Source of the DNA: Bactericera cockerelli
Taxonomy: Eukaryota > Arthropoda > Insecta > Hemiptera > Triozidae
Length of the DNA stretch: 64,000 nt
Assembly: GCA_024516035.1 (NCBI GenBank)
Contig: CM044967.1
Span: forward strand, 9,551,413 to 9,615,412
Direction: 5' to 3'
Of the stretch, positions 1 through 63,164 are shown one piece after another. Numbering within the stretch: the stretch's first letter is position 1; each line of letters opens with the position of its first letter. A program made the translations under genes and the position numbers. A model generated the notes under the pieces. The model saw only the letters and a list, made by a program, of their open reading frames with translations, searched no databases and was not told the DNA's origin.

Positions 1-371
1 ATCATGCTTCTTGGATAAGTAGAGATATCCACTGACCATGTGCAAGAAGTCGACTTAGAACTCGCGGTAGTGTGGAATTGTAGAGGATAAGCCTCCTGAG
101 GACAACTGAACTTCAAATATCCTCCAAGTGTAATAGTTTTAAATTAGTGTAGTGGTATTTAAAACTCCACACTTGTAAGTAATAGATAAATAAATATTAT
201 TCAGCATTAAATGGATAGATACAATTTCACAAGATTTAATTATATTTTTTGGATGAGTCCTTTATAATTATCACATTGACGTAAGATAATTGGTGTCACT
301 ATTCAAAATCCTCTAATATATACTACCAGCGGCCTGGTCGCTTCACCAAGCCATCACACACACACCACATA

Positions 372-690
372 TACATGAAAGCTCAAACCCTTACCTAAAA
401 CTTTCTCGCTTTAGTTATAGGTCGTCGCGACTAATTTCAAGAAAAAATGTCATTTAGGTCGAAAACCGTGGATATTTTTTGCATTACCCATCCATTTTCT
501 GTCTTACGGCGTAGCTCAAGAATGGCTCATCAGAATTCCGCGATCGATATGTCAAATGAAAGCTTAAACCCTTACCTAAAACTTTTTCGCTTTGAGTTGA
601 TAGGTCGTCGCGACAAATTTCGAGAAAAAATGTCATTGAAAAACGTGAATTTTTTTTGGGTCACCCATGCAATTTTTGTTTTTTGTCCCT
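372..690. repeat. Degenerate tandem duplication, period about 185 bp
   Basis: Two diverged copies of a block share AAACCCTTACCTAAAACTTT, ATAGGTCGTCGCGAC and GAAAAAATGTCATT, beginning near 374 and 556. The short open frame across it has no recognisable domain. The remaining 3' flank of the SPS copy, 690-1813, shows only AT-rich DNA and no clear gene. Confidence 0.6.
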
Positions 691-2509
691 ACTCAGTGTA
701 GCCTAATGCCTAGGGAGATTTAAACTAGCCTAGAAGAATTTTCTGATCCCAACAGACCAATGTGCAAAATTTCAGGTTTCGGTAAAACGGTGTGGATTTG
801 TATAAAGAACACACATACATACAGACAGCTTTCTTTCATAGATATTAGTGTACACAACAAAAAAGTTCGATTTGCTTAACACCTGTTATATTAATTTCAT
901 CCGAATCCAAATTAATCCTTAGGTCCTTTCACTACCAATACGCCCACAGCAAACCAAAAGGTCCTCTCGTTCAAATTCAAATATAATTATTAAGTATCTC
1001 CTTAAGAAAGACTAGGTTAGTATAAATAATTATATAAAATGATAACAGTCGTTAAATAGTAACTACAAATATAATTTTATTTTGTGCGAAAACTTGATGA
1101 ATAAATTTTACAGAAACTTCATTCCTTTGACATTTCTAAACGAAATTTACTCATAGGAAATCACAAGCAGCAAAATACACCACGAATTTCAAATTACGTA
1201 GATTTGAATATACAATATCACAGAACTTACTATTTAAAGTACTTTACAAAAAACATTATTATTTGCTATCTATTTTTAATTTCAAAAGGAGTCAATATTT
1301 AAATAGGAAATACAATTTATCCTAAATCATAGAAGTAAAAACTGAGATCTCTTAAAGGTTAGAATACTTCTGAAATATCTCACAGGCATTTTAATGTAAG
1401 AAATCAATTTGTGTATTTTTAAATCACCTAGCACTTATGGTTAAGGAGTTCAGAGTTCGATGGCCGTGTAATGCGTTGAGTTAAGCTCAACCTTTTCTAT
1501 TAGCGAATGCCCTCTAACACAAGGAGTGTTGAATATGAAACTCTCATACTTCGTGGGACTTTCATCAGGTTTTGTGCAATAATATACAAGGTTAATTCTG
1601 CAGGTTTTGTGTACTTCAGGTCAATACTTCGTTCCTCTTAAAGATGAGTCGATTTGCACAATTTCACAGAAATCCAGCTAAAATTCGATGTATTAGTGAC
1701 GCAACTTTGTTTCATTCGGTTTGATTTGATTTTTTTTTACACCTGAACAGAAAAAAACACACCTGATGCAAGTTTGTACACCATGAAACAATCAACATTT
1801 GTCAGAAGAACCTCTACAAAGTAATATGTATTATGGCTGGACTGTCTGGAATTACTATTTGTCTATTGCCGGACGTCACCTCTCCAATAATCCATGATAA
1901 CCCGTCCATTTCCCTGATGAAATCTGCAGCATGTTTTTCAGGCAAACAGATGAACAACCCTCCTGCAGACATGAATGAATCATAAACAATATGTTGCGCT
2001 GGTTTTTTTGTACAATAATACATTTTCTTACCACAGGACTGTTGTTAGGGCTCTACAGCTACACTGTATCTCAACATTATATTCATAGTAAATTATTGAA
2101 AATTTAGTAATGGCACTACTAGTCGCTAATAACACTATTAAAGTTTATTATTTATCCTCGACAGTTTTGATTAAATATTGAACTTTGGTTCCTAAAATCT
2201 CTTACACTGTTACAGGAATTAAATTTCATATGCAAGCATGTAATGCAATAGATGACATGATACTTATTGTTTAAAAATCGCCCCATACTCATTAATCCTT
2301 TCAAAGTTAATGTGAATAGCTGGGTAGTTTGCCAGCAAATGTAGTTTAAAACTCCCATCGTTGAAAATCATGGCCATTTTCTATGGATGTTGTTTATAGT
2401 GTAAAAAATAGCAATGAAATCTCTTCTATTCAGCAGTTGTATTTGATGTGTATTATAGATTGAAATACATTAGAAAAGACACATCAATGCGCCGACTTTA
2501 ATATTAAAA

Positions 2510-2560: not shown

Positions 2561-3121
2561 CTGAATCTTTTCAATCCTTATGAACATTCCTCAGAACAAA
2601 CTAACGTTAAAAATTATCAGAAGGGGTATAAAAAACAATGAAAAGCTGAATGCTGACTCTTTTGGTTGAGTAAATTCTGGCTACCATCGTCGAGGACATA
2701 AAGCAGATAAAATAAAATGTTACAAAATTTGATCTCCTTTTTCACTTTGTCTTTCCCAAATCCTACGGCGGCATTGGTCAACCTTTTCCTCTGGATTAGG
2801 TTTTGTTTGGTTCTGGCACTTGCATTTGATGTTGGGGCAAAATAAGTTTTAATTTAAAATGAGAAAATCTTACCTGAAGTTTCAATTCCAAGTCCTTTGT
2901 TCACATTCTGATAAAATCTAGTGCCAGGATGGGATGCAATAACGCCCAAGGGATACAATATTGGAAGGTGTGTATAAAAAAGTTGACGTCTTCTGATTGA
3001 TACTTGATCAAGTTTGAAGCATGTCCTACAAGACCGTAGCCTGTAATGTCCGTGCATGCATGAGCACCATATTTTTTCATTAAGGACAGCAGCTGAAAAG
3101 TAAGTTATTTAAATAATCCTT

Positions 3122-3310: not shown

Positions 3311-5612
3311 TAGAATTTAATTGGATATTTTTTTCCCACAATAATGATAACCATGATTTTATTTCCGTAGAGTTGAAATGGTAGGAGCACAAACCTTAAG
3401 AACATTAAATTGTGTTTTACTGTACAACATTTATCACACAAAAGTTATTCTTTAAATTAATTTTTACGAGGGGGTTGCCTAATGCTACCATGTGTTTCTA
3501 TGAATACGATTTGCTATTTTTGTTTTTTTTGTATGCTTGATTGCTATGAAAATTGTTTACCAAGTGATGAAATTTAGAAGCACTGATATAAATAAAATTC
3601 AAGTAACAAAGCACAAACCTTTCTTATTGAGAGTAGCCATGAGAGATATGGCTGAGTTTACACAGTTCTTCAGTCTTAAAGGGTCAACTTTAATGTTTTT
3701 GAGAAATATTATTTTTCTTCATTTTCCACCCAGGACCTTACTGTGACTGCCATTTGTGTTCCAAGGGGCTTTGTTAGAATAATCACATCACCTGCTTTGC
3801 TTTTTTTGGCCTAAAAAAAAAAAAATTGCTTTATTAATTTTGCTGTTGTTGTTGTGTAACTTCAATTTTAATTAAACTAACAAATTACAGTTAGCCAGAG
3901 TAGTACGGAATTCGAAATAGCATTGTCATGTTAGTTTATGTGGAATTTGAAATATGCTTTTGTTCTTCATCTTTTAGAATTACACATAATTTTATATTAC
4001 AATAGAATAGAACATTTTTCTAATTAACCTTTTGATGTCTCAAATATAATCATGAGTCTCAAAAACATACCTGATTAAAAATTGTTGCATGCAAAATTAT
4101 AGCCATGTAACATAAGAATATATAATTCCACATGTTTCCCATTTTACTATAGGGTTGTTAGGTGGTAGAAAATGCTTCTATTAACCTTGTTTGGAGATTA
4201 CCTTCTACTAAAGAATATTATTATAGAGCAGCCTAGTTTCGAAGTCGTTTTTACATAGGAATCTAGAACGTCATTGTTTGATCTTGCATGAGCTAAGCAG
4301 CTAAACTTGACTCTTTGTCTAATCTCACAACAGTCAGACTTTTGTTCTAGTATGTAACTGTAGAATTTTATGGAGTATCCAACTCAAATTTAATGAAAAT
4401 TTGATCTTGCAGTTCCTTTTTTTGTGGTAATACTTACATTATGAATTCTTCACTTGAACATACAGAAGTAACAACTCCTCCAATTGTTAACCATGGATTC
4501 AAGTTGATGGCAATTTTTGAAATGCTTACTCCAGCAATGTGAGCTTGTGCTTTGAACCCTTCAATCAACATGGGAATAATAACATTTCTTTCAATATCAG
4601 TCATAGCAGTTGAAACACCTACAATCATTTGCAGGGTGTCAATATCAGTAACACCAACTGCATAGATGTCACTTAAAACATTTGCACAAGCTATAGCACC
4701 CATAATATGTGGATGGTTTACCAGAGGGTAAAAGAAGTCAGTTGACTGAATTAAGTAAATTTGTTCCGCTCCTTTTCCAGAGAGTGGTATAATGCAGGAG
4801 TCTAGACCTGAACCTGAAAAACCAAATATGTACATATTATACACAAATTTACTGGTGATTACAACTAGCAGGCTTAGCAACAATACACCTAAGTATGTGG
4901 TACTTGAAACTTTTTTTGATAAGTTGGCATGCTAATCTGTGGCACTATTGATCCTTAGTGTTACCAACTTTCTTCACTGTTGTGAATTTTTGGACAGTAT
5001 TTTTAAGAACAATAATATCATTTTTTTTTCAACTTTTAATTTGGGTTTGACTAGTCACAACAAACATCTAGGATAAATATCATAAAAAGTTCAACTATAA
5101 AATTATAGCCCTTAACTATAGATCATTAATTTAACATTCCAGTTGCAGGTACAAATATGTAACCCACGATTTAACAGATTATTTCATAAACTCTTGATCA
5201 TATTATTTTCATAAACTCTTATACAAAAGAGTTATTTGTGACCAAATGACCAGAAAAAATGTTTATGACTTCAAGACTGGTTTCACGTTTTCACCTTATG
5301 AAGTACCTAAATTCTCACCCTCTAGAAATTGCACACTTCTTAGAAACCAAGCAAAAACTTCTTAGATTGACATTTTTTTTAGTGTTTCTAATTTTAATGG
5401 CACTATGTATCTAAATCTTTATATCTTCTAATTTAGGCTCTTTTTTATCAAAATGCCAGTTGTAGGAATAACCTATCCACATTTATTAGAAGCAGTCTCT
5501 CTTTAAAGTTTTGTATTTCACATCACACTGAGGTCAAAACTATAGGTATAGGAAAGAAGACATTAATCATCATTACCTAAGCTTTGTGAGGAGTTTGGAG
5601 CTTCATTGAATG

Positions 5613-5661
5613 TCCCTGACAGAAGTTTGGTTAAAACTATCTGGGGAACTTTGCAACCTCA
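5613..5661 (-). promoter_or_regulatory. In-frame UGA plus candidate recoding/readthrough stem-loop
   Basis: On the minus strand the TGA codon (5661-5659) is followed by 11 nt and then a hairpin at 5647-5613. Reading 5' to 3': UCCC pairs with GGGA, CAGA pairs with UCUG, AGUUU pairs with AAACU, around the loop UAACC. There is a one-base bulge on the 5' side and a three-base bulge (UCA) on the 3' side, giving 13 base pairs. Hairpins just downstream of UGA are known to promote Sec insertion or readthrough in some selenoprotein and SPS genes. The pairing is seen directly; the role is inference. The hairpin lies wholly within the exon. Confidence 0.6.
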
Positions 5662-5747
5662 TCCTATTAATCCAGCAAATTTTCTCAAACCAAACTCTTT
5701 TGTTAATGCATGATTTTCAGGATTGAAATCATCAATTTCTTTGGAAT

Positions 5748-11687: not shown

Positions 11688-14600
11688 TCACAAATTATCA
11701 AAGTTATCTTCGTCCTTTAGGTCATTGATAGTTTTCAGCTCTGTCCAATCACTCAACACTTTGGTATGAAATGGGTCCTTGGTTTTGAAGTCAAAGTTTG
11801 GAATACTTTCAACTTTTAGCCTTGAAAAAAAAAACAGAAAGAAATTAACATAAGTATTTCTAAATATACCGGAGTGCTCTGGTAAACTTAAATTTTATTT
11901 GGTCACAAGGTTAAACTGAATTGCTAGTGCATCAAGTTTTATGAGTACAAAGAAAGGCATTAAAACATTTTTAGTTTGTTATATTTGGTACATTTTATTA
12001 CAAAATGTAAGTTTTGATTAGAAACAAGAAAAAAAGGAGCAATCCAGAAGCATAAAAAAAGATGGTAGGTACATATTTGATTTTTCAATGGGTCTTAATG
12101 TACCAGATGTCTTTTTTTTCACAACTTAACAAACAACACAAGTTACTATCTGACCTGATTGTAGGGGTTTTACACTGTATAGTTTACATCTCAGTTTATT
12201 ATTATTATTATCTGACTTGGTTATAGGGTTTTAGTGAAAATTTCATACAATTATCACTACGTCCTAATGAGATCTACTGTGACCAGTTGGTTCTATTTGG
12301 TTTTAACGTCCTAATTCGAGTTATTCATGACGGGGGTTTTACCTTTCATTCACTGGGAATCGTACCAGCTACTCACATTAATCTCACCCAGCCTGCGTTG
12401 GGCCGGAAATACCAGCCTCACGTGTTCGAAACAGATTTTTTGTTAAAAAAATTCTTTCCAACCCGAGATCAAACTCAGGATCTCTGGAACACGGGCAGTT
12501 GTCACAACCATTACACCTTGGAGGCTTGCACTCAGTTAGCGAGACCAGTTGGGATTAGGCTAACTTATTCTTCAAAGTCATTTTAGGATTTACTTTACAA
12601 GTCAACTCAACAACAGTTATGTTTGACATTAGCATCATCACAACTAATTACTACTACTAAAATTCGTTTACTCTACTGTCAGACTTCTAACCTGTAAGCA
12701 TGTAACATCTGACGAGGAGGTTCCACTTCTTTTCGACGACTATAAGTGTAATCTCCTACTATTGTGTGGCCCAAGTTAGAACAATGCACACGAATCTGAT
12801 GTCTTCTCCCAGTAATAATCCTCAGGAGAACTTTTGTACAAGGATACGACATGTAGAGTCCATAGCTCAATACTAGAAGACGGGTATGAGCAGACTTAGC
12901 ATGAATGCAATTTTCATTGAATTCGGGCGAACACATTGCATTGCTAAAGTTGAGCTCTTTTCTATTGTATCCTGTAAAAAATGAGTTGTGACTAATTAAT
13001 GAGACGAAGAAACTGCACATATCGATATGCTGAACACTAGTTTATACGCGACGTGTAACGAGGAAACCGCGAGGTATAACGCCAAAATCCCGAGGAATAT
13101 CACTCAAAGTGCAATGTATGCCGTAATAAGCGAGGATAATATTTCTTCTCTCTGGCTTTTTAAAAACATGTGATAAAGTAACGAAATAAAAAAACTGTAC
13201 ACAGATTAGGACCCATACTTTGATAGTAAAGGGACTCTTTTAGTGTCATTCTTGCAGGATAAACAGAATATTGTATTAAATAAACTTACTATGTAATGCA
13301 TCAATATAACCACTTAGTCCCTAAACCTGACCTACTCATATTTTAACTATCACCTGTTCATAATCAGTCATTAATTATTAGTGATTAATAGGTACTTGGT
13401 TTTAGTTTTAGCGTAATTTAAGTTATTGCTGTTTTGGATTTTAAAAATCATAATACAGTGTTGAAATTATAGCCCTTGAGTATCTTTTCTTCAAAATGAA
13501 TAAAATCATGTGATTGAAATTATTTATTTTTTTTTTTGTGAGAAAAACTTTTACATACCTATGGGATCATGAATATCTAAAATATCTCTAGATACAATAC
13601 CCCTGACAAGGGCTAGATAGTATTTTTTCACTCTGGCTTTTTCAAAGCATGTGCACATTAGATTGCATGACTTCTTGTTCAAAGCTATCATCATCAAACC
13701 ACTGGTAGAATAGTCAAGACGGTGGGGGAAGTAGAACCCAAATTTCACATCTTTACACACTAGAGTTGGAAATTGTTTTTGCAATCTCAAATGCAGTGTA
13801 TTCTGAAAGAAATGTGAACAAACAAAATAATTATGACAAGGCTGATGAATGACTCTCTGATCATTTAGACGTTCCCAGGAGGGTCTTTTGAATAATGTGT
13901 CTATTGGGGATTTTGTTGCCTCATGATTTTAAAGGTCAATTATTTTTTCTAATGGCAAATTAAAAATATTTTTTATAATTTTCCTTTAAATTTAAAAAAA
14001 AAATTCATTGAACATTAAGCATAAAAAAAGAAAGTAAACTGCGTCCAGACCCTCCAAGGTATTTCATTAGATGGAATATTACATTGGATATGGGGATATG
14101 GTTACTAGGAGCAAGAGAAGACTTTAAAAAACTGAATTTGTTTATGAATTGTTCACATTTTGATGAGAACTATTCAATCATTTCATATTAAAAAAAGAAG
14201 AAGTAAATAGGTATTTAAAATTTAGCTCTACAAGGTCCAATAAAACTGGATTGAAAAAATAAATAAAATAAAAAAATAAAGTTACTAGTTCATACTAAAA
14301 ATTTAGACTAAAATTTGAGATGACACTTTGTTTGTTTAGTAGAATTACCAGAAACCATGTTTTCCTCAAAAAATTGTAACTAGCTCAACCAAGCACAATC
14401 CTTGGTCTTGATAAGGGTGTAGAATTTAACGTGAAGATAAAGAAGAAGATTATTGCGCATTTTGTTCAGAAAATTTGTTTTAAGTTACATTATAAATAAA
14501 ATCCCACTGCTAGTGGACCACAAGGTACCTTCACTTTATCTACATAATGATAATACCAGGGAAGCTGAAAATTTTCTCAGGGCCTTTTCTTGCTGTCTAG

Positions 14601-36700: not shown

Positions 36701-39700
36701 AGTTTTCTGGGATCGAGATGCAGATTCATTGGCTTTGGGTGTAGACTCGATAGGAACAGGAGGAATTCTTTGAATTGTAGACACAGGTGCGATTAAATTA
36801 CCGATTTGAGGTATCTGAAAGAGGGAGAAATATTAAATTACAGTTATAATTTTCACTGTCCTCCTGCGGTTTAATTCTTGATTATAATTTGGATACAATC
36901 ATTCCTCATCATAGGGTGGCGTCATCGTGAACGATGGTAGCCAGACTCAGCACTTCTACCACTGTCTATACAAGGAGGCTAATAATTGACAAGGGCCCCC
37001 AGAACCAAGCCAATGCTGGTCTACTCCCTGTTTATAGTCCCCCAGCCATACAATCATTAATAGAGATTAAAAAGCCTTTCTTCTAATATTATTTAAAAAA
37101 AATAGTATTAAAATTTATTTCCAAGTATGAATAGAATATTAAAATGGGATGCATTTGTGTGCTGTATGCGTTTTTTTGTTGGTGCAATAAATGTGCTGAT
37201 TTAATCAAATCAATTAATGTTGTTTCAATACAAAAAATTGCATCAATTTTTTTTTCTTCTCCATATATCATCTGTCTTAGTCCAAACTAGTCTAAATGTG
37301 TGTCTACATGATGACAGGCTTATGTGTGGATGGCTTTCATTATATTTTATTTTTTCCATTTAATTTTTTATTTGATTTTTGTGAATTATTATTGACATAA
37401 TATTAAAGTTAAGACATATGTAATTATGTTACTTTTACGCATCACAAATGTATGCAATTTTGCATTCATACATACCTCCGTAACATGAGTCTTTGCAGCT
37501 TTTCCTTTAGTTTGACCTTGGGTTTCATTATCTTTTAGTAAACGTTGCTTTCTTGTGTTTCTTCCTTGCTTTTTTCCTTGAGATTCTTTATGCAATTTTT
37601 CTGGAATGATAAATACAAAGTACATTTAGTGAATAACTTCAATTTATGTTATAGTGAGCCAATATACCTAGTAATCAAAAAGTATTGTCATTGTACAACA
37701 TGAATTTTTTTTCTAAGAACTATTAGATATTAAGTAGATCGCAGCTACTGTTTCAAAATATAATTTTTTTTTTTCTTCTTCTTCTTTTACTCTGTCTTAT
37801 CCCGCTTGAGCAGGGTCGACGTTGTTCAACCTCATGGTTGAGGTTGGTTGGTTTTGGCACATTTATTTACGGCTGGATGCTCTTCCTAACGCCGATTCTA
37901 TTTGATTTGACGTGCTGGATTAGGACGGAAGTTTTACCCTCCATTCGCTGGGAATCGTAAAAGCTACCCAGCCTACATTAACCTCACCCAGCCTGGGTAG
38001 GGCCGGAAATGCCAGCCTCACATGTAAGGAGGGAACAGAATTTTTTGTGTGAAAATTAATGTTAAATTAATACATTAAATTTAATTAAAATAATACATTA
38101 TTAATTTAACTATTGATAGTAGTAAGATATTTCTTACCAGACAAATAAAATTCTATGAGTAAGATATTTCTTACCAGTCAAATAAAATTCTATGTCTATC
38201 ATAAATTTTAAAAGTGTGAGGACTACGGTTTTAAAAACTACTTCCTTGTAATTATATTTATTTATAATATTTCCTTACCAAACTCTTGCTCAGTACGATT
38301 TCGATGCAAATAAAGCCAAATTTTTCTCTTTTGATCATATCGCACACAGGGATCAAATTCTGAATGCAGGCGGTCAAGAGCTCCACTGACGATCGTATTT
38401 AGTTCAGCATCCTTATTATTTGAGCAGAGATATTGAGAGTCCTGAAGCAACGTGCACACGTCACCTCGTGTGCCTTGACCATTTGGTAGTCTTGCTACTG
38501 CATCTCGGACTGAAAGCGAAAACAGAAAGTTTCATTTAGAAATGCTAAAACATTTTGTGTTACTCGGAGGACGTGTCCGTAATCTGTCTTACAGAAATGG
38601 CTAAAAACAACTAGTAAAAATTTCAATGCAATTAGTTGAAATGTTAAGTTTAGAAATACATAAAGGTCTGACAAACTGTAATAAATAAGAACTCCAAGTC
38701 TAACTTTATACTTCGCTTATATCTCGTGAAGCGTACACCTGAATTTGATAAATAATTGTATGTGTATTATACGTATTAGCATTTAAATAGTACATTTGTA
38801 TTTTTATTGAATAAACTATGGTTACGTTCTGATGTTAATGAAAAACCGAAAATCTGTACCAAAAGTGCAAATATAAGGTTTTCAACTTATCGATACACAA
38901 TTTTTTTTTTTTTTTTTTTAAATTTTGACTATAGGAAAACAATATTCCACCATATAAAACATATTTGGAGATACTCGAGAATTTTTGGAGATTTACTAAA
39001 AAAACCTCAGAATATAGCGACAGTGGTATTGTATAGCCAATGGTATAAATCTTAGAATATAATATCGAAAAATTTGTTCGTTTTAAAGACAATATTATCT
39101 CGATTTTCCCAAAAAAAAAAAAAAATGTTAAGGATAAAGGTGTACCAAAGATATCTTCTTTAAAAGAAAATTGGAACTTTCATTGATTATGTAGTCATTA
39201 AATCTAGTGTCACTCATTGCTACCCTTGAAAATAGTCCAAGGTTTTTGAGTTGTCTAAATTAACGAACACCTCACAAATACTTTGTAAAAGTAAAGGTTT
39301 TATAGGAATTTTGAAGTCCTGAGACCCACACCAAAAGTTAAAACCTGAAAATTACAAATATTTTAGTGTGTGTTATTACAAGTGTTTATATTTCTATTCT
39401 ATGTCTTAGAGACAATAAATTTTAATATCTGAAAATTTTACCTAGAGCCAGAATAGTTACAAAGGTAGGTCGATCTCGAGTGAGCATGGAATGGTCTCTG
39501 ACTCCTCTCCCATACGGCGCAGATTGGCTGAGGCTAAATATTCCTCTGAGAGGACCCACTACGGACTCGTAACCATGCATACGGTACACATATGGCTTGT
39601 GAGGATTGTCAAAACGCTCTTTCTCCTGGGGATGAAATAGGTTTATAGTTAGTATCGAAAAGAAAACTTGTTTAAAATAATATTATGTTAAACAGGTGTT

Positions 39701-47741: not shown

Positions 47742-49283
47742 GGGAGATAGGGGAAAAATCTTTTAAAGACACCCGGTTAACATGGGGAGTAGGATTTCCA
47801 CCCACTAAAAAACCTATCTCTCTCATTTATAGACAGTGTATCCGGAACCGTTACTTGAACATTACTTCAGATACACTGCCTCTTGGGCTCACCTTGGGAT
47901 AACGTCAAGGGCCCGACTGCTCTGATTTCTCATTCTCTCATCTCTTGCTTTCCCTCTCATAATCTCTCTAATTAAGCTCTCTATTCTCAGCCACTTACTC
48001 TCACTTTCTAACATTTTATCTATTATATTCTCCACACATAGTTCTTCCCCCCCATCCTCTCTGTATTTTCTTCTCTCTTCCTCGAATCTTGGGCATTGAA
48101 ATAATGTATGTTCGGGACTATCCTTTTCACTACAGTATCTACATTCTTCTGACCGTACTATTTTCATTCTAAACAAATAATTATTAAAATTTCCGTGTCC
48201 TATTATGAACTGACTTAGTTCATAAGTGAGTGACCCGTGCTGTCTAGTCCTCCACTTTTCTATATCTTTAATCAATCTTTTTGTCCATTGTCCTCTTTTT
48301 TCTTCCATTCTCCATTTCTCTTTCCATTTTTCTACTAAATTACTCTCTATTTTACGTTCTCTTTCCTTTCTCTCTTCCTCGTTATAATTCTCGTATTGAT
48401 TTAATTCATACAATTTAACTCTTTCTTCTACCATCATCTCTACAGGTAGCGATCCTGTAAGGACTTGTAAGGCTGGTGTAGATGAAGTCCTATATGCTCT
48501 CGCCATTCTCAACATAACTTTCCTCTGTACTCTTTCTACTAAATTTACATACTTATTCCACTTTATTACACTCCCCCATACAGGCACTCCATACAGTAAA
48601 CTTGAATAAACTACACTCGCTAAAATTTTCCTTTTCTCATTATCTGGACCACTTATGTTTGGCATAAGTCGGCCCAGATTTGCCGCTATTCGCTCAGACT
48701 TTTCTACTGCACTCTTTACATGAACTGCTAGCTTCAATCCTTGCTCAAAATGGACTCCCAGGTATTTCGCTGATTTCTTAGATTTTACTCTCAGATCTTC
48801 TACTTGAACCTCTATCTCTCTGCACACTCTTTTACACACTAATAACACTACCTCAGTTTTGTGTGGGGCTACTTGTAACTTGTGACATTTTAACCAACAT
48901 ATAATCTCACTCACTGCCTTATTAATATTTCTCTCTATAACTTCTTTACTCTCTCCTGTGGTCACAACTGCAACGTCATCTGCATATGCTATTATTTTTT
49001 TTAGTATACTTCAGTATACTATAACTATAATAGTGTGAAATAATTCAGTTGAGTACTTTTACAAAATATGGGCTAGTCAATTTATAGAGTGAAATGAAGG
49101 AGCCAACCAACTTCATGACCAAATATTCAGAATTTAATTATCAAGTTTAGTTGATGCTGCAAAACTGTCTACTAAATAAAACTTTCCCCAATTTTCTAAA
49201 CCAGTTTAGTTTTTTCAATAAATTTAATTTAATCATTGACACTTACCTGTTTCACAATTAATGGAGTTGGAAGCTGATGCCAT
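27304..49283 (-). CDS. NFRKB: NFRKB orthologue, INO80 chromatin-remodelling subunit (23 exons)
   Basis: NFRKB (INO80G) is a metazoan INO80 subunit that contacts and restrains the deubiquitinase UCH37 in the nucleus. Minus-strand exons: 49247-49283 (ATG), 46599-46918, 45231-45427, 44638-44903, 43955-44157, 43492-43677, 43145-43227, 41510-42469, 40984-41189, 40021-40304, 39442-39625, 38279-38509, 37476-37600, 36309-36814, 34523-35352, 33528-33600, 32406-32666, 31723-31947, 30526-30926, 29266-29550, 28907-29032, 28020-28209 and 27304-27410 (TAG). All have GT-AG borders. All junctions are phase-consistent except exon 14 to exon 15, which is one base out and may hide a small exon or another donor. 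The total is about 2,090 codons, longer than human (about 1,300). The extra length lies mainly in the Ser/Asn-rich exon 8 and the Gln/Thr/Ser-rich C-terminal third. The strongest match is exons 11-12 (PYVYRMHGYESVVGP, ARLPNGQGTR, VSGALDRLH, DPCVRYD, IWLYLHRNR). Confidence 0.93.
31338..31534 (-). repeat. tRNA-headed SINE (family A) in NFRKB intron
   Basis: On the minus strand: CTGTCCCGGTAGCTCATTGG, GGGTTCGATACCCAGTCGGG, GACATGACAAGTTATCCTC and TACTGCTGAAATAATAGGAC, ending in ATT repeats. It is near full length compared with 62091-62313. Confidence 0.75.
32930..33330. repeat. Dispersed repeat, inverted relative to 6.4-7.1 kb
   Basis: GGCTTGTTAGGGTGGGCTA, CTAGCGAGACACTGGTC and GATGGTCTCCAGCCAACTT have diverged reverse-strand counterparts at 6400-6530 and 6960-7075. 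A partial relative is at 54795-54890. The element type is not identified. Confidence 0.5.
33827..34398 (+). mobile_element. Internally deleted mariner-family element
   Basis: The TA target site (33825-33826 and 34399-34400) flanks inverted termini starting CAGGGTGCGGCGCGG that stay alike for over 30 bp. The 572-bp body keeps an open frame at 33961-34287. It joins the transposase N-terminal helix-turn-helix start (SKQQKAYCVESYFLKN) directly to the C-terminal block SPDLAPCDFFLWGYLKS. Most of the catalytic core is absent, so the product cannot be a working transposase. It lies in the NFRKB intron between exons 15 and 16. Confidence 0.88.
35930..36090 (+). repeat. Degenerate tRNA-like SINE in NFRKB intron
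   Basis: GTTCGATTCCCGGTAGCGCA (B-box-like) is followed by GGAATTTCTGCTGTGTACTT and GTGAGGAAAAATGAGTAG. This order resembles the family B tail at 50045-50228 in the reverse direction. It sits next to the unresolved exon 14 to exon 15 junction. Confidence 0.5.
37840..38050 (-). repeat. SINE copy sharing the 5S-SINE body
   Basis: On the minus strand it contains GGCTGGGTGAGGTTAATGTA, CCCAGCGAATGGAGGGTAAA and, upstream, AAAAATTCTGTTCCCTCC. The body equals that at 63013-63140. It lies in the NFRKB intron between exons 12 and 13. Confidence 0.6.
38121..38194. repeat. Tandem duplication, period 37 bp
   Basis: Two nearly identical units beginning AGTAAGATATTTCTTACCAG lie in an NFRKB intron. They differ at a few positions only. 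Confidence 0.75.
38279..41189 (-). other. NFRKB: NFRKB exons 9-12: winged-helix-like domain and conserved core
   Basis: Exon 9 encodes the helical segment ENHCLFILIRDIICSSS and the NTWESLLQPAVAFLAGEYPG block, which matches the human winged-helix-like domain (ELVLPALQYLAGE). Exon 10 supplies DDFVPFIEYK, QWIGAGRDTDNNLNQLANIW and CPTNWTIRPCTPEERKAFH. Exons 11 and 12 hold the most conserved part of the family, from the HGYESVVGP block to LYLHRNRTEQEF. Exons 9-12 are in phase without lesions. Confidence 0.88.
40497..40674. repeat. Tandem duplication, period about 89 bp
   Basis: Two copies of a unit begin CAATATTTAATTTAATTACA and contain GCGAAGTTAATGCC and CTTAACCCCGAACTTAACTT. They differ by about three substitutions and one G. 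They lie in the NFRKB intron between exons 9 and 10. Confidence 0.8.
44638..46918 (-). other. NFRKB: NFRKB exons 2-4: Ser-rich leader and DEUBAD-like domain
   Basis: Exon 2 gives a Ser-rich leader followed by SILTMENI and ADDLEKLF. Exon 3 continues with NDLPEFPKRNAEEKKKTLQ, LLAGESFAFDTNPITAFSE and LKDGHYHYDVV. Exon 4 gives KKYKINLLVEGIANRNRML, then an acidic SSSSDDDSSEG end. This aligns with the human segment LPQFPED, LFSGENFRFGNPL, LFRDGHFNPEVV and HRLLKQILASRSDLL, the DEUBAD domain that binds UCH37. Identification is by remembered family sequence; the intervening introns hold a fold-back element. Confidence 0.85.
45871..46538. mobile_element. Fold-back element with CAGGGTGTC termini
   Basis: The ends CAGGGTGTCTATAAAGTCC and GACTTTATGGACACCCTG are inverted. 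Long internal segments (46045-46260 against 46290-46520) are also reverse complements, including GAGAAGTTCATTGC and CAGTGAGCTACGAC. There is no transposase. The element lies in NFRKB intron 2. Confidence 0.75.
47710..49007 (-). mobile_element. 5'-truncated non-LTR retrotransposon (R1/Jockey-like RT fragment)
   Basis: Minus-strand translation starts at the reverse transcriptase active-site box IIAYADDVAVV near 48965-48997. It runs without a break to a stop at 47889-47891 and includes YLGVHF, VYSSLLYGVPVWG and a C-terminal Cys/His cluster (CRYCSEKDSPEHTLFQC). A short 3' UTR and a poly(A) tail, seen as the T run at 47710-47738, follow. A 13-bp direct repeat ACTTCAGTATACT flanks it (47697-47709 and 49008-49020). 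Intact frame and matching target duplication indicate a fairly young insertion into NFRKB intron 1. It lacks endonuclease and most of the RT, so it is not autonomous. Confidence 0.9.
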
Positions 49284-62891: not shown

Positions 62892-63164
62892 GCCAGCGTT
62901 GATGGCATGTTGAATACACCGGTTCCCTTCAGAACACCGAAGTTAAGCGACATCCAGCGAGGTTAAGACTTGGATGGGTGACCATTCAAATTCTAATTCT
63001 CGTGACGCTGGCTTTTCCCGGCCCCACTCAGGCTGGGTGAGGTCAATGTGAGTAGCAGGTTTGTGAGTTTCCTGCGAATGGAGGGTAAAACCCCCGTCGT
63101 GATATGACCATGGCAGTTGAAAGCGACGTTAAACCCCACTTAAAAAAAAAAAAAAAAAAAAAAA
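62892..63164 (+). repeat. 5S rRNA-headed SINE (SINE3-type)
   Basis: Positions 62892-63012 read as a 5S rRNA derivative. The GCCAGCGT start pairs with ACGCTGGC at the end, and TTGAATACACCGGTTCCCTT, ACCGAAGTTAAGCGACATC and CTTGGATGGGTGACC match 5S helices and the internal pol III control region. A 128-bp body follows (GGCTGGGTGAGGTCAATGTG, GGAGGGTAAAACCCCCGTC), then a poly(A) tail to 63164. A 5S gene would end after about 120 nt, so this is a retroposon. Confidence 0.85.

What the first reader, a model, noticed from the sequence alone, without database searches (positions are those of the whole stretch)
5577..5747. In-frame UGA at the selenocysteine position of an SPS-family gene
The exon reads through a conserved SPS N-terminal block with a single stop, TGA, between GLIG and GCKVPQ. 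This is exactly the residue that is Sec in SPS2, Thr in human SPS1 and Arg in fly SPS1. A random nonsense change would be unlikely to fall there. From memory, insects are known to keep UGA-containing SPS genes, including forms without a SECIS element. This gene belongs to SPS2 or to such a UGA-type SPS1.
Basis: partly seen in the sequence, partly recalled or inferred. Interest (0 to 1): 0.9.

Follow-up and report, generated by a model that had tools for sequence, protein, structure and literature searches.

The report
Selenium-enzyme gene of a sap-sucking psyllid

Summary
The exon at 5577-5747 (minus strand) has one stop, TGA at 5659-5661, at the Sec position of selenophosphate synthetase. The genome looks psyllid: the closest named homologs are Diaphorina, Cacopsylla and Cyamophila.

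I read the gene as SPS2 (SEPHS2), not SPS1-UGA. A separate SPS1 with arginine lies on contig C2. A tree separates the two. The readthrough hexanucleotide of SPS1-UGA is absent. tRNA-Sec, SepSecS, eEFSec and a PSTK-like ORF are present. A form-2 SECIS candidate lies about 650 nt past the stop; Rfam does not confirm it.

Against: four single-base frame shifts break exons C and D. Homolog P0002 (268 of 275 residues identical) reads through all four. I take them as assembly errors, but a decayed copy is not excluded. The psyllid and beetle SPS2-like proteins found lack the GGQT motif, whose Gln position is listed as an ATP-phosphate contact.

A new member of a known kind. Whether insect SPS2s work without that motif is the more interesting question.

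The parts
5577..5747 (-). SPS2 exon A, holding the in-frame TGA at 5659-5661 (Sec position) and GCKVPQ
   Evidence: splice sites TTGCAG / GTAATG
5659..5661 (-). TGA codon at the Sec/Cys catalytic position, followed by GGTTGC
5620..5700 (-). possible SRE-like stem-loop around the UGA (10-bp helix GAGUUUGGUU/AACCAAACUU); weak evidence
   Evidence: -19.2 kcal/mol, z -2.00, 7 of 200 shuffles fold at least as well
4438..4813 (-). SPS2 exon B, open; Asp motifs GLD, STD and LSD kept; GGQT of other SPS replaced by KIAI
3619..3810 (-). SPS2 exon C, with two single-base frame shifts (near 3797 and 3711)
2874..3092 (-). SPS2 exon D, with two single-base frame shifts (near 3085 and 2967); TDITGYG kept
1814..1962 (-). 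SPS2 last coding exon, ends ...IIHITL and TAG at 1814-1816
1116..1168 (-). candidate form-2 SECIS element about 650 nt downstream of the stop (UGA of the 5' quartet at 1163)
   Evidence: not listed by Rfam

Best explanation
This is the SPS2 (SEPHS2, selenophosphate synthetase 2) gene of a psyllid. Shown here: an in-frame UGA at the Sec position, five coding exons separated by four GT-AG introns, close psyllid homologs that are uninterrupted downstream of the UGA, a separate SPS1-Arg gene, and core Sec-decoding genes in the same genome. Inferred: the UGA is decoded as Sec by tRNA-Sec and eEFSec, directed by a SECIS in the 3' UTR (candidate at 1116-1168), possibly helped by a stem-loop around the UGA. 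The enzyme then makes selenophosphate, the selenium donor for Sec, including its own. The four frame shifts in exons C and D are most likely assembly errors.
For: Single stop in exon A, exactly at the Sec codon, with canonical splice sites. Psyllid homologs by identity to the query: P0001 Diaphorina 76%, P0003 Cacopsylla 78%, P0004 Cyamophila 76%, and unnamed P0002 98%. P0002, P0003 and P0004 are 77, 81 and 80% identical to P0001. P0002-P0004 and P0121 all begin at MGAIACANVL, whose Met is the first after the UGA in the window, as expected if the stop is conserved. Tree: psyllid SPS2 clade apart from the SPS1 clade that holds the C2 gene. tRNA-Sec 76.6 bits with UCA anticodon. SepSecS: 7 matches spanning profile positions 1-388 of 389; three hold stops, which on reading lie past the exon ends. 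eEFSec domain III 100.8 bits, no stop. PSTK-like 391-aa ORF, best NCBIfam model selen_PSTK_euk at 90.3 bits but below its 382 cut-off. SECIS candidate: 0 of 1000 dinucleotide shuffles as good. [quoted passage not shown] that psyllids lie outside it is my inference.
Against: Four frame shifts in 411 nt of exons C and D. No shift was seen by eye in the exons found of SPS1 or SepSecS, so a high general error rate is not supported. Rfam lists no SECIS in the window or flank. A genome-wide RF00031 search found none, but only 150 of 9552 candidates were scored. The SECIS thresholds were set after seeing the candidate, its fold energy is unremarkable (z -1.50, 14 of 200 shuffles as good), a plus-strand low-complexity site scored higher in the same scan, and my positive control (SelK) failed. 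The GGQT motif is lost. The Diaphorina protein P0001 shows Asn in the Sec column; I could not see its codon.
Confidence: 0.8

Rival explanations
1. A decaying SPS2 pseudogene. The gene broke in this lineage or individual and the UGA is a fossil of the Sec codon.
For: Four frame shifts clustered in exons C and D; the GGQT motif is gone; none seen in the SPS1 or SepSecS exons found.
Against: P0002, 268 of 275 residues identical, is uninterrupted across all four shifts with only 3 substitutions, whereas neutral decay would normally bring many substitutions per indel (general knowledge). No other copy was found in the assembly that P0002 could come from (matches only at C13 and C2). The motif change is shared by the 4 aligned psyllid proteins, so it is not decay of this copy. 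Core Sec genes persist.
Confidence: 0.12
2. A UGA-type SPS translated by readthrough with an ordinary amino acid, like the SPS1-UGA of Hymenoptera and some Paraneoptera.
For: No SECIS confirmed by Rfam; a stem-loop surrounds the UGA; loss of the ATP motif hints at altered function.
Against: SPS1-Arg is already present; the tree places the gene outside SPS1; the GGG-UG[C/U] hexanucleotide is absent; Sec machinery is present; a SECIS candidate is present.
Confidence: 0.06
3. The TGA itself is an assembly error in a sense codon.
For: The gene does carry apparent indel errors further down; the Diaphorina model P0001 has Asn in the aligned place.
Against: It would have to fall by chance on the Sec codon; three models of named psyllids (P0003, P0004, P0121) and P0002 start downstream of it.
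Confidence: 0.02

Closest known systems
Insect SPS2 / SEPHS2 (Sec-containing selenophosphate synthetase)
   Same: UGA at the Sec position, AIRS/AIRS_C fold, presence together with SPS1-Arg and Sec machinery; the same motif is missing in the SPS2-like proteins of Ignelater, Trypoxylus and Abscondita (beetles, from recall)
   Different: psyllid-specific sequence; intact frame and SECIS not proven in this assembly
SPS1-UGA of Hymenoptera, Rhodnius and Pediculus (PMC4561486, passages)
   Same: UGA at the same codon, a structure around the UGA
   Different: no GGG-UG[C/U] hexanucleotide, not in the SPS1 clade, GGQT lost, SPS1 present separately as the Arg form
SPS1-Arg of this genome (C2:45020974-45027098)
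   Same: homologous protein, shared intron position before the GIGMD/GSGLD motif
   Different: Arg (CGC) instead of UGA, intact GGQT, an extra intron inside the exon B equivalent

Membership tests
SPS2 / SEPHS2 selenoprotein | In-frame UGA at the Sec position before GCK | tested here: met
SPS2 / SEPHS2 selenoprotein | SECIS element in the 3' UTR | tested here: inconclusive
   candidate; no Rfam match
SPS2 / SEPHS2 selenoprotein | Phylogenetic place outside SPS1 | tested here: met
   with the long-branch caution printed by the tool
SPS2 / SEPHS2 selenoprotein | Genome decodes Sec (tRNA-Sec, SepSecS, eEFSec, PSTK, SBP2) | tested here: met
   tRNA-Sec, SepSecS and eEFSec found; PSTK-like only; SBP2 not searched
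SPS2 / SEPHS2 selenoprotein | Intact open reading frame apart from the UGA | tested here: not met
   four frame shifts in this assembly; uninterrupted in the near-identical P0002 downstream of the UGA. The filing as SPS2 rests on reading these as assembly errors.
SPS2 / SEPHS2 selenoprotein | SelD catalytic and ATP-site residues | tested here: inconclusive
   Lys of GCK and Asp motifs kept; Gln of GGQT lost
SPS2 / SEPHS2 selenoprotein | Makes selenophosphate | not testable with these tools
   needs an enzyme assay
SPS1-UGA | GGG-UG[C/U] hexanucleotide after UGA | tested here: not met
   GGTTGC
SPS1-UGA | Membership of the insect SPS1 clade | tested here: not met

The most novel reading that the evidence does not exclude
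Psyllid SPS2 is the only UGA-type SPS found in a genome with Sec machinery, yet it lacks the GGQT loop whose Gln position is listed among the ATP-phosphate contacts. Insect SPS2s that lost this loop would then make selenophosphate with a remodelled ATP site, perhaps in a mixed dimer in which SPS1-Arg supplies the missing contact.
Probability: 0.2. Interest if true: 0.55.

Novelty: new member of a known kind. Interest (0 to 1): 0.3.

Why it matters
It adds a psyllid to the insects whose SPS2 keeps the Sec codon, beside the lineage (scale insects, phylloxera, aphids) in which selenoproteins were lost. It also shows how such a gene is truncated in databases: four records (P0002, P0003, P0004, P0121) start downstream of the UGA. 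The loss of the GGQT loop in psyllid and beetle SPS2-like proteins makes a concrete biochemical question testable: can such an enzyme still make selenophosphate?

Tried and rejected
Pseudogene: my first reading, from the four frame shifts and the lost GGQT motif. I gave it up as the leading view when P0002 proved uninterrupted and the motif change proved shared by the psyllid proteins.

Selenoprotein-less genome: rejected on tRNA-Sec, SepSecS and eEFSec.

Two AIRS hits on C1: repeated gene fragments whose translation does not read as SPS; I took them for GART, from recall.

Rfam SECIS over the own genome: empty but barely informative (150 of 9552 candidates scored). SelK as a positive control for the SECIS scan: one exon found at C5:2330645, but its last exon was not located in 9 kb, so the control failed and the scan's sensitivity is unknown.

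Literature: searches (psyllid with selenoprotein; SEPHS2 with Diaphorina citri; SPS2 with ATP loop) were read as listings. From them I looked at passages of PMC7376646, PMC6780682, PMC12775102 and PMC7595633. The two psyllid transcriptome papers name other proteins (Sel1, Selenoprotein F) and do not contain 'selenophosphate'. I saw no description of this gene, but did not open the other listed papers. Fig. 7 of PMC7376646 may include psyllids; only its legend is held.

Full report
What is there. The gene lies on the minus strand. Five coding exons, 5577-5747, 4438-4813, 3619-3810, 2874-3092 and 1814-1962, all have AG acceptors; the first four have GT donors and the last ends at a TAG. Together they give 1,107 nt. 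The reported exon has one in-frame stop, TGA at 5659-5661, exactly before GCKVPQ. An upstream first exon was not looked for.

Which organism. The closest named homologs are psyllid: Diaphorina citri, Cacopsylla melanoneura and Cyamophila willieti. P0002, from the unnamed source 'lgn' (I take it to be Logan contigs of public reads, from recall), matches the window at 268 of 275 residues. The assembly is 565 Mb. PMC12203342 (passages) quotes 567 Mb for Bactericera cockerelli, so that species is a guess.

Which paralog. Searches of the whole genome with an exon B protein and with P0002 found only two SPS loci: this one and one on C2. The C2 gene has Arg (CGC) at the Sec position and an intact GGQT. 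A 42-row tree puts the C2 gene in the insect SPS1 clade and the window gene with psyllid homologs (100/100), then a Schistocerca paralog (97/90). The tool warns that long branches meet there. The hexanucleotide after the UGA is GGTTGC, not the GGG-UG[C/U] said to be ultraconserved in SPS1-UGA (PMC4561486, passages). I therefore read it as SPS2.

Can the genome decode Sec? tRNA-Sec scores 76.6 bits against a cut-off of 47, with anticodon UCA. SepSecS has 7 matches spanning 1-388 of 389 positions; two of the 7 are below the cut-off and three contain stops, which on reading the frames lie past the exon ends. eEFSec domain III scores 100.8 bits with no stop. A 391-aa open frame matches eukaryotic PSTK at 90.3 bits, below that model's cut-off of 382. 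SBP2 was not searched. [quoted passage not shown] I infer that psyllids fall outside. The passages do not name psyllids in that context.

SECIS. A pattern scan found a form-2 candidate at about 1116-1168, some 650 nt after the stop; it is the best minus-strand hit in the window, though one plus-strand low-complexity site scores higher. None of 1000 dinucleotide shuffles of window 1-1852 held one as good, but the thresholds were set after the candidate was seen. An earlier, cruder scan ranked it below several others. Its folding energy is not unusual (z -1.50, 14 of 200 shuffles as good). Rfam did not list it, and the whole-genome Rfam search scored too few candidates to count. The SECIS remains a candidate. 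The UGA sits in a stem-loop of -19.2 kcal/mol (z -2.00, 7 of 200 shuffles as good).

Frame shifts. Against P0002 the window shows 3 substitutions and 4 shifts of frame, two in exon C and two in exon D. A decaying gene normally gathers more substitutions than indels, so I favour assembly error. The clustering is odd, since the SPS1 and SepSecS exons found showed none by eye. The two views cannot be separated without reads.

Is the UGA conserved? Psyllid-like records P0002, P0003, P0004 and P0121 all begin at MGAIACANVL; in the window that Met is the first after the UGA. This fits a conserved stop. Diaphorina P0001 extends to ...LLKINGCKVPQ with Asn in the place of Sec.

The lost motif. Of 244 proteins listed lack GG[QHE][TS]. 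They are 5 psyllid-like SPS2 records (Diaphorina twice), 4 from Ignelater, Trypoxylus, Abscondita and Lamprigera (beetles, from recall; the Lamprigera model looks chimeric and its motif region was not checked), 9 unnamed ones, of which 8 or more were in the tree beside the beetles, and 3 other deviants (P0048, P0080, P0088). Two of the three searches were seeded with motif-less queries and all lists were capped at 120, so 21 of 244 is not a frequency. Schistocerca keeps GGHT. In the tree the psyllid and beetle groups are apart, so one loss or two cannot be told. I recall that Drosophila SPS2 also lacks the motif; no call showed it. In the Leishmania structure 5l16 the Gln of this motif falls at residue 173 by my count on the alignment. 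PMC7595633 (passages) lists residue 173 among ATP-phosphate contacts, though it prints Glu. Psyllids have Ala there, while the Lys of GCK and the Asp motifs are kept.

Verdict. It is a new member of a known kind. The open question is whether insect SPS2s without GGQT are active.

Noticed in passing
window 4438-4813; P0001-P0004, P0124, P0207, P0210: The GGQT ATP-site motif of SelD is missing from psyllid SPS2s and from beetle SPS2-like proteins, but kept (as GGHT) in a Schistocerca paralog.
   Followed up: partly
P0204 and P0005 (unnamed sources): Two SPS proteins carry Trp at the Sec position (RGWGCKVPQ, KGWGCKVPQ), one base from UGA; a real UGG or a UGA read as Trp by the source cannot be told apart. 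One search counted 4 such proteins in all.
   Followed up: no
window 12682-13928, minus strand: Pseudouridine synthase exons, PF00849, near the SPS2 gene.
   Followed up: no
window 38265-38531, minus strand: NFRKB second winged-helix domain, 125.5 bits.
   Followed up: no
window 47892-49010, minus strand: 373-aa open frame with a reverse transcriptase match (PF00078, 33.8 bits); probably a retroelement fragment.
   Followed up: no
window 62892-63013, plus strand: Full-length 5S rRNA match, 63.7 bits.
   Followed up: no
C10, C4, C5, C11, C631 and C682 of G000: 14 further tRNA-Sec-like matches of 27.5-46.3 bits, all below the 47-bit cut-off; possibly ordinary tRNAs or tRNA-derived repeats.
   Followed up: no
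L052 (C5:2329500-2338500): SelK-like exon; its last exon, where Sec or Cys would lie, was not found in 9 kb.
   Followed up: partly
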